Source: a virus. From it: a DNA stretch of 36,836 bases. Position numbers and translations under genes: made by a program. This document shows positions 6,161-34,910 of this stretch, in pieces; position 1 is the first letter of the stretch, and every line of letters begins with the position of its first letter. The stretch is taken from positions 1 to 36,836 of the IMG/VR virus record IMGVR_UViG_3300036885_000544. The stretch is one strand, 5' to 3'. Below the pieces are notes generated by a model. That model had not been told where the DNA came from and ran no database searches. It saw only the letters and a list, made by a program, of their open reading frames with translations.

Positions 6161-6502
6161 ATGAGTATAACAACTACTGCAACGCTCCCCGCTCCCATCC
6201 AGCAGAGCTTCAGTTTTAAGTTACTTTCAGTTCCTGTGCCGTACATGATCCACAAGATCCCGGCAGATCTGAAAGCAATGCCACGTAATGGTGGTACGAC
6301 CCTTAGAATGCGACGGTATAATGCCCTCGCAACCGCGCCAGCGCCTCTTGGCAATACTGGTATAACGCCAGCGCCACAGAATCTCACAGCGTTGAATATC
6401 GACGCTCAGATGGATTTCTATGGAACGTATGTGCTTCTAAACGAGCAAGTTACGTTGCAAAACCAAGACCCTGTATTAAACGAAGCGGCCCAAAGGCTCG
6501 GT
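6161..6502 (+). CDS. Major capsid protein, exon 1
   Basis: This holds 114 codons, ending in arginine-leucine-glycine. The last six bases, CTCGGT, pair with the guide sequence GCCGAG at 6512-6517, with the final U opposite G as in group I splice sites. Reading on into the intron gives 19 more codons and then TAA. Confidence 0.85.
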
Positions 6503-8175
6503 AGAAAGTATGCCGAGGATAAACTTTCTCTGATTGACTTGGAACTCCTTGAAGCTGCATAAGCAGAAAAAAGGAAAACAGGGGGCAAGTATGGATAGTG
6601 AATGTAGCAGGTGTAAAGATAAATTGTCTTTCACAGCAGGCGAAAGAATTATATTTTGCTTTACGCTTTGCGATAAGTGTAATAAAAAATATAGCAAAAA
6701 GCTTTTGAAAGGAATGAAAGCACACATAAACAAATTCCTACAGATGAAGGACATCGGGGGGAAAGCATGAAAAAGAAATGTGATATCTGTAAAGATCAAG
6801 AAGCAGAGTTTGAGAATTTCATGCATCACGAAGACGGAAAGAAAAAGAATTTCTGTGTCTCGTGCTATTTATACAATGCTTTTGCTTTTCAGTGCATTCT
6901 AGCCAGAAACATGACTCGTTTAGCGGAATATTATCAAACGCTTTGTGTCACATCTGGAATCATACAGCCTGAACGACTAAGTGAGAAAGGCTCGATGAAA
7001 GAAAAAAGGTCTAATCTGCGTAAAGCAAATGAAAAACTTATTAGACAGTCTCGAGTATGCGATAGTCTGAACAGCGACCATAAATAAAATCGCTGAGAAT
7101 AGGCCGAAGAGCCTGTTCCGCCTAGGAAACTAGGTCAGAAAAGTAACAGAATGGTATCGTTAAGACAGACAGAAGACCAGTTGATGAGAGACATGCTCGC
7201 GTCAACTGCAACTTTTATAAATTGCATTGGTGGTTCTGACGGTAGAAAAAATAGGGTTGTTGCCGTCATTAAATCTTCTTTAATTGACTTGGAACTCCTC
7301 GCGGCGTAGGCCTAGGACAACAAGGGGCAAGATATGAGAAAAGAAAAAGTCTGCATTATAGACAAAGAAAAAATATATTGTTCTTCAAGAATGAAAGACA
7401 ATTTTATGATCTATTGTTTTCACAATGATTTAGACAAAAAACTTTATCTTTGTGCGAGACAAAAATCATCAGAAGGTCAGTGTTTTTTCGGAATAGACTT
7501 TGAGCCAGATTTCTGTCCATTCTGTGGATTTTCATATCAGCCTGACAGACTAAATAAGAAGACCTCGGAAGAGGATGCGATAGTCGAGACTTATGGGCAA
7601 CCATAAGAGATGGCAGAAATGACCATCCGCCTAGAAATAGGTTAACAAGTAATAGATAGGATAACCCAACAGAAATCACCCGCAGTGACGTCGACTTTGT
7701 GGTCAGAACGCTGAGGGGCAACAATGCCTACAGCTATCTGTCAGGGGTCGAGGGGGAAAATCGTTTTGGAACAGCTCCAGTACGTGATGCCTATTTTGGG
7801 CTTGCTCACACTGATCTAATCGGTCAGCTTGACAACGTAAATGGATTTATCCAGAAATGGAACTATCCCAATCAACAGTCCACGCTTGATGCGGAATGGG
7901 GAACTGTCGCCAATATTAGATTCTTACTATCTAGCATTGGATCAGTAACGCCAAATGCATCCTTGCTTGGTGCAAATGTGTATAATTGTTTTGTATGTGG
8001 CCGCGAGGCATTCGCAGCTATCGAGCAAGACGGGTACAGCGCACAATTTCTTTACCGTCCGCCAATTTATGATGGTCCACTGGCTCTAAACGCATCTGTG
8101 GGCTATAAATTTGCAGAAGTACCGAAGATACAGAACGATACTTGGCTGTTAAATCTTAGAATGACATTGGCATAA
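6161..8175 (+). CDS. Major capsid protein, split by two group I introns
   Basis: Joining 6161-6502, 7154-7243 and 7660-8175 gives one 315-residue frame. All three parts follow each other in the order expected for an N4-gp56-type capsid protein, with the 30-residue middle piece (VSLRQTEDQLMRDMLASTAT) fitting between the ends. Without splicing, translation from the ATG stops after 133 residues. Both junctions fall between codons, after a glycine codon GGT. The gene follows the scaffold, as expected for the main shell protein. The family assignment is from remembered sequence pattern; the joined frame is seen directly. Virion yield should depend on splicing of both introns. Confidence 0.88.
6591..6770 (+). 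CDS. Intron 1 protein A, small zinc-ribbon type
   Basis: This encodes 59 residues with CSRC (5-8) and CDKC (27-30), a likely zinc ribbon, followed by a lysine-rich helix. The ATG follows GGGGGCAAGT, so the ribosome binding site is also part of the intron core, and folding and translation would compete. No HNH, GIY-YIG or LAGLIDADG motif is present. It overlaps the next gene by 4 bases. It could be a DNA- or RNA-binding helper of the intron (inference). Confidence 0.65.
   Translation: MDSECSRCKDKLSFTAGERIIFCFTLCDKCNKKYSKKLLKGMKAHINKFLQMKDIGGKA
6767..7087 (+). CDS. Intron 1 protein B, cysteine-rich
   Basis: This encodes 106 residues, coupled to the preceding gene by ATGA. CDIC (5-8) and CVSC (30-33) form a second likely zinc ribbon, followed by helices rich in arginine and lysine. 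The 3' end of the frame runs through the R element, P3' and the S element of the intron, so codons there are constrained by RNA structure. No homing-endonuclease motif is visible. It may be a maturase-like or regulatory factor, or a decayed endonuclease that kept only its zinc modules. Confidence 0.6.
   Translation: MKKKCDICKDQEAEFENFMHHEDGKKKNFCVSCYLYNAFAFQCILARNMTRLAEYYQTLCVTSGIIQPERLSEKGSMKEKRSNLRKANEKLIRQSRVCDSLNSDHK
7154..7243 (+). CDS. Major capsid protein, exon 2
   Basis: This holds 30 codons (VSLRQTEDQL...GGSDG) lying between the two introns. It ends in GACGGT, which pairs with GCCGTC at 7262-7267 for the second splice site. Reading on into intron 2 ends at TAG (7307-7309). Confidence 0.85.
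7244..7659 (+). ncRNA. Group I intron 2 in the capsid gene
   Basis: This is a 416-nt intron related to intron 1. P1 is exon GACGGT (7238-7243) with GCCGTC (7262-7267), ending in U.G. P3 is TCTTCTT (7274-7280) with AAGAAGA (7556-7562). P7 is GACTA (7548-7552) with TAGTC (7581-7585). P8 is CCTC-GGAA-GAGG (7563-7574). P9 is CCTA-GAAA-TAGG (7630-7641). The last base is G (7659). It shares with intron 1 the 17-base block (7283-7299) and a GGGGCAAG block just before the internal ATG. The guide sequence differs in step with its own exon, so each intron is adapted to its site. Confidence 0.9.
7334..7606 (+). CDS. Intron 2 protein, zinc-ribbon type
   Basis: This encodes 90 residues with scattered cysteines and a clear CPFCG knuckle near residue 61. 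The ribosome binding site GGGG is again part of the intron core. The last 25 codons cover R, P3', P8 and S of the intron. It is not obviously alike in sequence to the intron 1 proteins, yet shares their size class and metal-binding look, and it lacks endonuclease motifs. Function unknown. Confidence 0.6.
   Translation: MRKEKVCIIDKEKIYCSSRMKDNFMIYCFHNDLDKKLYLCARQKSSEGQCFFGIDFEPDFCPFCGFSYQPDRLNKKTSEEDAIVETYGQP
7660..8175 (+). CDS. Major capsid protein, exon 3
   Basis: This holds 171 codons plus stop, beginning with aspartate-asparagine-proline-threonine-glutamate. It carries the C-terminal half of the shell protein (GENRFGTAPVRDAYFGLAHT; NLRMTLA end). A GTG at 7699 could start a shorter product, but no ribosome binding site precedes it. 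Confidence 0.85.
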   Translation, partial: DNPTEITRSDVDFVVRTLRGNNAYSYLSGVEGENRFGTAPVRDAYFGLAHTDLIGQLDNVNGFIQKWNYPNQQSTLDAEWGTVANIRFLLSSIGSVTPNASLLGANVYNCFVCGREAFAAIEQDGYSAQFLYRPPIYDGPLALNASVGYKFAEVPKIQNDTWLLNLRMTLA

Positions 8176-34741: not shown

Positions 34742-34761
34742 GATTGCTCCTATCTTTGATT

Positions 34762-34834
34762 CTCCTGATGCATGAATCGAACATGCGACTCCCTCGTTAA
34801 CAGCGAGGTGCTCTACCAGCTGAGCTAATCAGGA
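34762..34834 (-). tRNA. tRNA-Asn (GTT)
   Basis: This is a 73-base cloverleaf. The acceptor arms TCCTGAT/ATCAGGA pair fully with discriminator G. The D arm is GCTC/GAGC; the anticodon stem CCTCG/CGAGG has loop CTGTTAA, anticodon GTT; the T arm is GCATG/CATGC with TTCGATT. No CCA is encoded. Confidence 0.93.
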
Positions 34835-34837
34835 ATA

Positions 34838-34910
34838 TGCCCGAAGTAGGATTCGAACCCACGGCCTACTGTTTACGATACAGTAGCTCTACCAGCTGAG
34901 CTATTCGGGC
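34838..34910 (-). tRNA. tRNA-Thr (CGT)
   Basis: This is a 73-base cloverleaf only 3 bases from the tRNA-Asn. The acceptor GCCCGAA/TTCGGGC pairs fully with discriminator A. The anticodon stem ACTGT/ACAGT has loop ATCGTAA, anticodon CGT, reading ACG. The T stem has one G.U pair. No CCA is encoded. Confidence 0.92.

What the first reader, a model, noticed from the sequence alone, without database searches (positions are those of the whole stretch)
6503..7659. Two group I introns 90 nt apart in the major capsid gene
Seen: the capsid frame is broken into three parts that join in frame between codons. Each gap starts after GGT, ends with G, and has P1 with a U.G splice pair (CTCGGT/GCCGAG; GACGGT/GCCGTC), P3, P7 (GACTA/TAGTC) and a GAAA-capped P9. 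Known: these are group I hallmarks. Capsid genes carrying two such introns so close together are, as far as I know, rare. The P1 guides differ to match their own exons while a 17-base core block is identical, which fits duplication followed by adaptation to a second site.
Basis: partly seen in the sequence, partly recalled or inferred. Interest (0 to 1): 0.9.

Follow-up and report, generated by a model that had tools for sequence, protein, structure and literature searches.

The report
Capsid gene split by two ribozyme introns
A virus of microbes carries two self-splicing RNA introns 90 bases apart in its main shell-protein gene, and the same gene in its relatives is riddled with such introns, including tiny 28-65-base ones that have lost their whole catalytic part and appear to be cut out by the neighbouring intron.

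Summary
The major capsid gene (6161-8175) is split by two introns, 6503-7153 (651 nt) and 7244-7659 (416 nt), around a 90-nt exon. Removing them gives a 315-codon frame that matches uninterrupted relatives with no gap. Both carry group I anatomy: P1 with a U.G splice pair, P10, P3-P8 and a terminal G. Rfam misses them, but a covariance model built here from 24 minimal relatives finds both, and only both, in the window.

The "duplication then adaptation" idea is not supported: each intron groups with same-site introns of other phages. Nor is the gene a rare case. In this uncultured clade it is a hot spot: 175 introns of one family at 42 sites, and about half of the relatives carry at least one.

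The surprise lies in relatives. 61 capsid genes carry a 28-65 nt insert after codon 88 with only a P1/P10 guide and splice sites, and no core. Every contig long enough has a full intron 26-86 nt downstream. The insert's 3' half pairs with the exon ending about 8 nt before that partner's 5' splice site, whichever site the partner uses, with compensatory changes. A second site shows the same design. These look like coreless group I introns spliced by a neighbour's core. No RNA evidence exists yet.

The parts
6161..6502 (+). capsid gene exon 1 (codons 1-114)
   Evidence: aligned without gap to uninterrupted relatives; PHROG 1357
6503..7153 (+). group I intron 1, 651 nt, insertion after codon 114
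   Evidence: spliced alignment, covariance model halves 6520-6637 and 6905-7070, same-site relatives L011, L041
7154..7243 (+). capsid gene exon 2 (30 codons, VSLRQTEDQLMRDMLASTATFINCIGGSDG)
   Evidence: tblastn and spliced alignment
7244..7659 (+). group I intron 2, 416 nt, insertion after codon 144
   Evidence: spliced alignment, covariance model halves 7270-7385 and 7462-7588, same-site relatives L109, L149, L071
7660..8175 (+). capsid gene exon 3 with stop
6497..6502 (+). intron 1 P1 exon strand CTCGGT, pairs with guide 6512-6517 GCCGAG (U.G at splice site)
6508..6517 (+). intron 1 internal guide: P10 guide GTAT (6508-6511, pairs 7154-7157) and P1 guide GCCGAG
6524..6530 (+). intron 1 P3 5' strand CTTTCTC, pairs 6983-6989 GAGAAAG
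   Evidence: family covariation
6538..6586 (+). intron 1 P4 (6538-6541/6579-6582), P5 and P6 5' strand GGGC 6583-6586 (3' strand GCCT 6967-6970)
   Evidence: family covariation
6975..6979 (+). intron 1 P7 5' strand GACTA, pairs 7063-7067 TAGTC
6991..7055 (+). intron 1 P8 with enlarged loop (CTCGA 6991-6995 / TCGAG 7051-7055)
6591..6770 (+). intron 1 small ORF, 59 aa, cysteine-rich, in the P6 loop
   Evidence: (weak zinc-finger-like matches below cut-off)
6767..7087 (+). intron 1 ORF, 106 aa, cysteine-rich start; its 3' part runs through P7, P3, P8
   Evidence: DUF7685 E 0.004, below cut-off
7238..7243 (+). intron 2 P1 exon strand GACGGT, pairs with guide 7262-7267 GCCGTC
7254..7267 (+). intron 2 internal guide: P10 guide GGGTTGTT (pairs 7660-7667) and P1 guide GCCGTC
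7274..7280 (+). intron 2 P3 5' strand TCTTCTT, pairs 7556-7562 AAGAAGA
7288..7328 (+). intron 2 P4 (7288-7291/7321-7324), P5 and P6 5' strand GGGC 7325-7328 (3' strand GCCT 7540-7543)
7548..7585 (+). intron 2 P7 (7548-7552/7581-7585), P3 3' strand (7556-7562) and P8 (7563-7566/7571-7574)
7334..7606 (+). intron 2 ORF, 90 aa, cysteine-rich, begins in the P6 loop and runs through P7-P8; no homing endonuclease domain

Best explanation
The window's capsid gene holds two complete, separately acquired members of one group I intron family that is specialised on this capsid gene. Each intron folds its own P3-P9 core, docks its own P1 (U.G splice pair), is cleaved by an external guanosine and ligates its exons aligned by P10 (inferred from group I biochemistry; RNA not shown). 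In relatives the same family has a reduced form: inserts of 28-65 nt after codon 88, and an independent set at a second site, that keep only the internal guide (P10+P1), a helix strand (called PX here) and the 3' splice G. They lack every core helix and sit just upstream of a complete intron. PX pairs with exon sequence ending about 8 nt before the partner's 5' splice site, so the composite reads P1-(3 nt)-PX-[partner P1]-P3..., with the middle exon in the PX loop. The likeliest mechanism is that the partner's single core first splices out the coreless insert, which destroys PX, and then splices its own intron. Two full introns a few dozen nt apart, as in this window and in L199 (26 nt apart), would be the precursor state.
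For: Window introns: joined frame equals uninterrupted relatives; P1, P10, P3, P4, P7, P8 present; family core on 24 minimal introns: 97.8% of cells paired, 24 of 30 pairs with compensatory change, 0/500 shuffles, slid controls at most 47.5%; model hits only these two introns in the window. Coreless inserts: 61 distinct, 28-65 nt, guide base opposite the exon U is G in 61/61. P1/P10/PX on 46 composites: 93.4% paired, every P10 and PX pair changed on both sides somewhere, 0/500 shuffles on cells paired, slid controls at most 41%. Best helix ends 6-11 nt before the partner 5' splice site in 39 of 43 (8.8% in shuffles); partner site predicted from complementarity 43 of 43. Minimum-energy folds form P1 and PX in 54 of 56 (PX in 23% of shuffled controls). 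Association in relatives not selected for the insert: 27 insert+partner, 0 insert alone, 21 downstream intron only, 81 neither, Fisher p 5e-15. Full introns at codon 88 exist in L302 and L199. The second site has the same design with its own compensatory changes.
Against: No RNA or splicing data for any of these. Rfam finds none of the introns, so assignment to a group I subgroup is not made. PX is weak or absent at the expected place in a few composites (L100, L119, L123, L132, L304). In the 116 class the exon strand never varies, so permutation is uninformative there (82/300). That the partner's core, rather than another ribozyme or protein, acts on the insert is inferred.
Confidence: 0.85

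Rival explanations
1. The two window introns arose by duplication within this phage, the copy then adapting its guide to a second site.
For: Shared 39-nt 5' block at 79% identity and a 17-mer identical.
Against: The shared block is conserved in the whole family. Each intron's nearest kin are same-site introns of other phages; the tree distance between the two is 1.66 against 0.34-0.38 to same-site kin; the nearest neighbour is in the same genome in only 2 of 100 cases.
Confidence: 0.06
2. The short codon-88 inserts are translational bypass elements (as in T4 gene 60) skipped by ribosomes, not introns.
For: Size (28-65 nt), in-frame stop in 46 of 47, location in an essential gene, take-off codon GGT.
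Against: The last codon is ATG, TTG, AAG, TAG, GTG, GAG or CTG, never a glycine codon matching the take-off codon. P10 and PX covariation with exons, and obligatory company of a downstream intron, are not expected of a bypass.
Confidence: 0.04
3. The short inserts are non-functional repair scars (inverted copies of exon sequence made by template switching at endonuclease cuts).
For: They contain near-inverted copies of neighbouring exon sequence.
Against: The copy always carries a G opposite the splice-site U, 61/61; they shift the frame or add stops in the capsid gene in every one of 47 cases checked; pairing is kept by compensatory changes; two independent sites share the same spacing.
Confidence: 0.04
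4. The short inserts are spliced in trans by some other group I ribozyme or a protein, and the downstream intron is only a genetic neighbour.
For: Group I cores can act in trans in engineered systems (PMC4094466).
Against: The insert's PX strand matches the exon next to its own partner, at the same distance for four different partner positions; no insert was found without a downstream intron in long enough contigs.
Confidence: 0.08
5. Insert, middle exon and partner are removed together (exon skipping), giving a shortened capsid.
For: Exon skipping between close group I introns is documented (PMC11878797, PMC10136302).
Against: The middle exon is 26, 50 or 86 nt in three of four classes, so skipping breaks the frame; the insert's P10 guide pairs with the start of the middle exon and covaries with it.
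Confidence: 0.06

Closest known systems
Phage group I introns with close spacing: Twort orf142, SIOphi terminase (PMC11878797, PMC10136302)
   Same: Several group I introns in one phage gene with very short exons between them; a downstream ribozyme can reach a distal 5' splice site.
   Different: All those introns keep their own cores; no coreless member and no exon tether helix is described in the passages read. Here the gene is the major capsid gene and 42 sites are used.
Small degenerate group I introns of Phialophora rRNA, 63-75 nt (PMC3160393)
   Same: Tiny introns with P1 (G.U), P10 and a pairing between mid-intron and 3' exon (PM), and loss of most core helices; long flanking RNA was needed for splicing in vitro.
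   Different: They are described as keeping their own P7 and splicing by themselves, with a terminal U. The phage inserts are as short as 28 nt, have no room for P7, end in G, always accompany a full intron and carry a partner-specific tether. The Phialophora case may deserve re-reading in this light (inference).
Spliceozymes, engineered Tetrahymena ribozymes (PMC4094466)
   Same: One group I core recognises both splice sites of a 64-100 nt coreless intron and excises it.
   Different: Engineered and in trans; here it would be natural, in cis, and the same core also removes its own intron.
Euglenid group III introns (from general knowledge; named in PMC4424553)
   Same: Reduced introns whose catalytic parts are supplied from elsewhere.
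   Different: Derived from group II introns; no group I counterpart found in the papers searched.
T4 gene 60 bypass element (from general knowledge)
   Same: Short insert of similar size in an essential phage gene.
   Different: Ribosome hop with matching take-off and landing glycine codons, which are absent here.

Membership tests
[quoted passage not shown]
Group I introns (window introns 1 and 2) | P10 pairing of the guide with the 3' exon | tested here: met
   intron 2 eight pairs; intron 1 four pairs, two of them G.U
Group I introns (window introns 1 and 2) | P3-P4-P5-P6-P7-P8 core with P3/P7 pseudoknot, supported by covariation | tested here: met
   on 24 family members; elements located in the window; model hits
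Group I introns (window introns 1 and 2) | match to Rfam Intron_gpI (RF00028) | tested here: not met
   This is a database model, not a biochemical definition; the structural features are met
Group I introns (window introns 1 and 2) | guanosine-dependent self-splicing | not testable with these tools
   needs RNA
Homing introns | encode a homing endonuclease | tested here: not met
   window ORFs have no such domain; LAGLIDADG genes, often on the opposite strand, are found in larger introns of relatives
Group I introns (28-65 nt coreless inserts of relatives) | P1 with U.G and P10 guide | tested here: met
Group I introns (28-65 nt coreless inserts of relatives) | own catalytic core P3-P8 | tested here: not met
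   28-65 nt fully read; the family core alone needs about 106 nt or more. They work like group I introns only with a core from elsewhere
T4-type translational bypass element | landing codon matching the take-off codon | tested here: not met

The most novel reading that the evidence does not exclude
Phage capsid genes contain naturally coreless group I introns that keep only guide and splice sites. They are spliced in cis by the catalytic core of a neighbouring complete intron, to which an exon-intron tether helix (PX) presents them, so one ribozyme removes two introns in order. This would be a group I counterpart of the proposed path from autonomous group II introns to core-dependent introns.
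Probability: 0.75. Interest if true: 0.93.

Novelty: new variant of a known kind. Interest (0 to 1): 0.78.

Why it matters
The window pair alone is a new member of a known kind, in an unusual host gene: published phage introns sit mostly in nucleotide-metabolism and DNA-handling genes (PMC11878797). The wider system matters more. It appears to hold all stages of intron reduction at one site: none, full (L302), two full introns 26 nt apart (L199), and coreless with a dependent tether. That would make the question of how an autonomous intron becomes dependent on another's catalytic core directly testable in small RNAs (a 28-nt insert with a 199-nt partner, L119). It also shows a capsid-specific intron family at 42 sites that Rfam does not detect, so capsid genes of such phages may be mis-annotated as broken.

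Tried and rejected
Rfam on the window, the interval and six relatives: no group I hit; weak hits to snoRNA and other families are chance. Pfam and PHROGs on the window's intron ORFs: nothing above cut-off. Nucleotide search of the gene in 50,697 phage records: no match; protein search: three capsid proteins at 26-28% identity. Bypass, repair scar, exon skipping and in-genome duplication were considered and set aside for the reasons given under rivals. Alignments of truncated contigs and of very divergent capsids produced spurious short gaps (for example L035, L167, L205); these were not counted, and only inserts with exact boundaries and a guide were used. Search patterns contain the P1 guide, so P1 in those loci is not independent evidence; P10 and PX of the codon-88 inserts were not in the patterns (the pattern for the second site does include the first bases of its PX strand). 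The variants GCCGAA and GCCATA were found without a P1 pattern. The spliced aligner gives a small bonus to exon-final T and intron-final G, so those two counts lean that way by construction, although the protein frame fixes the boundaries within a few bases.

Full report
What is in the window. The region 6161-8175 encodes a 315-residue major capsid protein in three pieces, 6161-6502, 7154-7243 and 7660-8175. A scan of IMG/VR with the third piece gave 298 relatives, of which 80 were fetched. In most of them the three pieces are contiguous with gap 0 at both junctions. An intron-aware alignment places the introns exactly at 6503-7153 and 7244-7659, between codons 114/115 and 144/145. Both capsid halves match PHROG 1357, major head protein.

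Are they group I introns? I therefore tested the structure directly. Twenty-four minimal introns of the same family from relatives were aligned. The structure P3, P4, P5, P6, P7, P8 was counted on them: 97.8% of cells pair, 24 of 30 base pairs have at least one compensatory double change, no shuffle of 500 reaches any of the five measures, and slid versions pair at most 47.5%. A covariance model from this alignment hits the window significantly in exactly four places, the two halves of each intron, E 1.1e-8 to 3.3e-4. The halves are separated by small ORFs in the P6 loop that run on into P7, P3 and P8. P1, P10, P3, P4, P7 and P8 were located base by base. Most family members end in GTAACAG or GTAATAG followed within a few bases by the final G. 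Splicing itself is not shown.

Origin of the pair. In a tree of 100 intron cores the site-114 intron of the window groups with site-114 introns (L041, L011, with L005 and L027), and the site-144 intron with L109 at the same site (support 0.98) and L149. The two window introns are far apart (1.66 substitutions per site against 0.34-0.38 to same-site kin). Nearest neighbours share the site in 60 of 100 cases (12 expected) and the genome in 2. So the pair is not a recent in-genome duplication. Among 129 distinct unselected relatives about 60 carry at least one full intron in this gene and about 21 two or more. Site 114 is occupied in 2 and site 144 in 10 of them. Over all fetched loci, 175 introns that pass a core-motif filter occupy 42 positions of this one gene. 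The larger introns carry LAGLIDADG endonuclease genes, often on the opposite strand; the window's introns carry only small cysteine-rich ORFs of unknown function.

The unexpected part. The same alignments showed, in relatives, inserts of 28-65 nt after codon 88. They are far too short for a core, contain stops or shift the frame (46 of 47 have an in-frame stop and none could be read through), and are flanked by exact exon boundaries. Pattern scans and further loci brought the total to 61 distinct inserts. Their anatomy is constant: a P1 loop, a guide of P10 plus P1 (TACGGT/GCCGTA with G opposite the last exon base in 61 of 61), three bases, a 9-base strand called PX here, and a 3' end in G. 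P1 varies in step with the exon where the exon varies (TTCGGT/GCCGAA, TATGGT/GCCATA). The P10 guide follows the third base of the next codon (ACC/GGT, ACG/CGT, ACA/TGT, ACT/AGT).

Partner dependence. In relatives that were not selected for the insert, 27 carry the insert and a full intron at codons 90-120, none carries the insert alone, 21 carry only the intron and 81 neither (Fisher p 5e-15). The partner sits at four different positions, 26, 48, 50 or 86 nt downstream. PX is complementary to the exon that ends about 8 nt before the partner's 5' splice site in each case. The best helix falls there in 39 of 43 (8.8% for shuffled strands). Comparing complementarity to the three candidate regions names the right partner in 43 of 43. 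Permuting PX strands within a class destroys pairing for classes 96 and 104 (0 of 300) but is uninformative for class 116, where the exon strand does not vary. In a fixed register, offset 3 and distance 8, 86-87% of cells pair against about 0.3-0.5 off the diagonal. On 46 composites P1, P10 and PX together pair in 93.4% of cells, and all four P10 and all nine PX pairs show double changes. Thermodynamic folding gives P1, three unpaired bases and PX in 54 of 56.

Evolutionary series and a second site. L302 has a complete 428-nt intron at codon 88. L199 has full-size introns at 88 and 96.2 with 26 nt between; its codon-88 intron contains a partial second copy of its own core. L262, L228 and L281 have the 96.2 intron without an insert. 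In divergent capsids a second set of inserts (35-48 nt) lies after ...NRVDVD. It has P1 GTCGAT/GTCGAC or GTGGAT/GTCCAC, P10 TGCA/TGCA, TGCC/GGCA, TGTA/TACA, and PX such as TTAGTGAT/ATCACTAA or TTTGTGATG/CATCACAAA ending 7 nt before a partner intron (15 loci, of which L253 has only a short PX, and three probably had the 3' splice site set too early by my search, giving an apparent 78-nt exon).

Mechanism. Shown: anatomy, covariation, association, spacing. Inferred: the partner's core docks the insert's P1, the insert is spliced out so that exon 1 joins the middle exon, PX disappears, and the partner then docks its own P1. Topologically the composite is a group I intron with P1-J-P2, where P2 is PX and the middle exon lies in its loop. 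Exon skipping is unlikely as the productive route because 26, 50 and 86 nt are not multiples of three. That a downstream group I ribozyme can use a distal 5' splice site in cells was proposed from experiments with engineered tandem introns (PMC10136302), and that one core can excise a coreless 64-100 nt intron is documented for spliceozymes (PMC4094466).

Comparison. The nearest natural case read is the 63-75 nt introns of Phialophora rRNA (PMC3160393), which have P1, P10 and a mid-intron/3' exon pairing but are reported to keep a P7 and to splice without another intron. Nothing like a partner-tethered coreless group I intron was found in eight literature searches of the open library. Most subscription papers are not in that library, so novelty is stated with that limit.

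Verdict. The coreless relatives make the system a new variant of group I introns, and if the inferred splicing is confirmed, an important one.

Noticed in passing
   Followed up: yes
L243, L253, L278, L332, L334-L339, L342, L344, L347, L348, L351: Second, independent site of coreless inserts after ...VDVD in divergent capsid genes, partner intron 66 nt downstream.
   Followed up: partly
L199, first intron of the capsid gene on the minus strand: Codon-88 intron that contains a partial tandem duplication of its own core, next to a second full intron 26 nt away.
   Followed up: partly
large introns of relatives, e.g. L081 c116.2, L149 c144.0, L093 c96.2: LAGLIDADG endonuclease genes encoded on the strand opposite to the intron and capsid gene.
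   Followed up: partly
window 6583-6591 and 7325-7334, and many relatives: Small ORFs in the P6 loop start a few bases after ACAAGGGGCAAG, a core strand that also looks like a ribosome-binding site, and end in a core-encoded tail (QPERL...); different small proteins sit in different introns, as if cargo.
   Followed up: no
L316-L319: Capsid relatives on 35-41 kb contigs binned in genomes of Simkaniaceae and Parachlamydia (Chlamydiota), Methanomicrobiales and Lokiarchaeota; a weak host hint, binning may be wrong.
   Followed up: no
about 33 of the loci it brought (e.g. L202, L206, L246, L275): The intron core sequence also occurs in viral contigs where no capsid relative was detected; the split genes there were not identified.
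   Followed up: no
window 34761-34910 (-): Two tRNA genes, Asn(GTT) and Thr(CGT); the weak YrlA hit overlapping them is explained by the tRNAs.
   Followed up: no
Rfam 15, Intron_gpI: A whole phage group I intron family with about 200-nt minimal members is invisible to the Rfam model even at permissive settings.
   Followed up: partly
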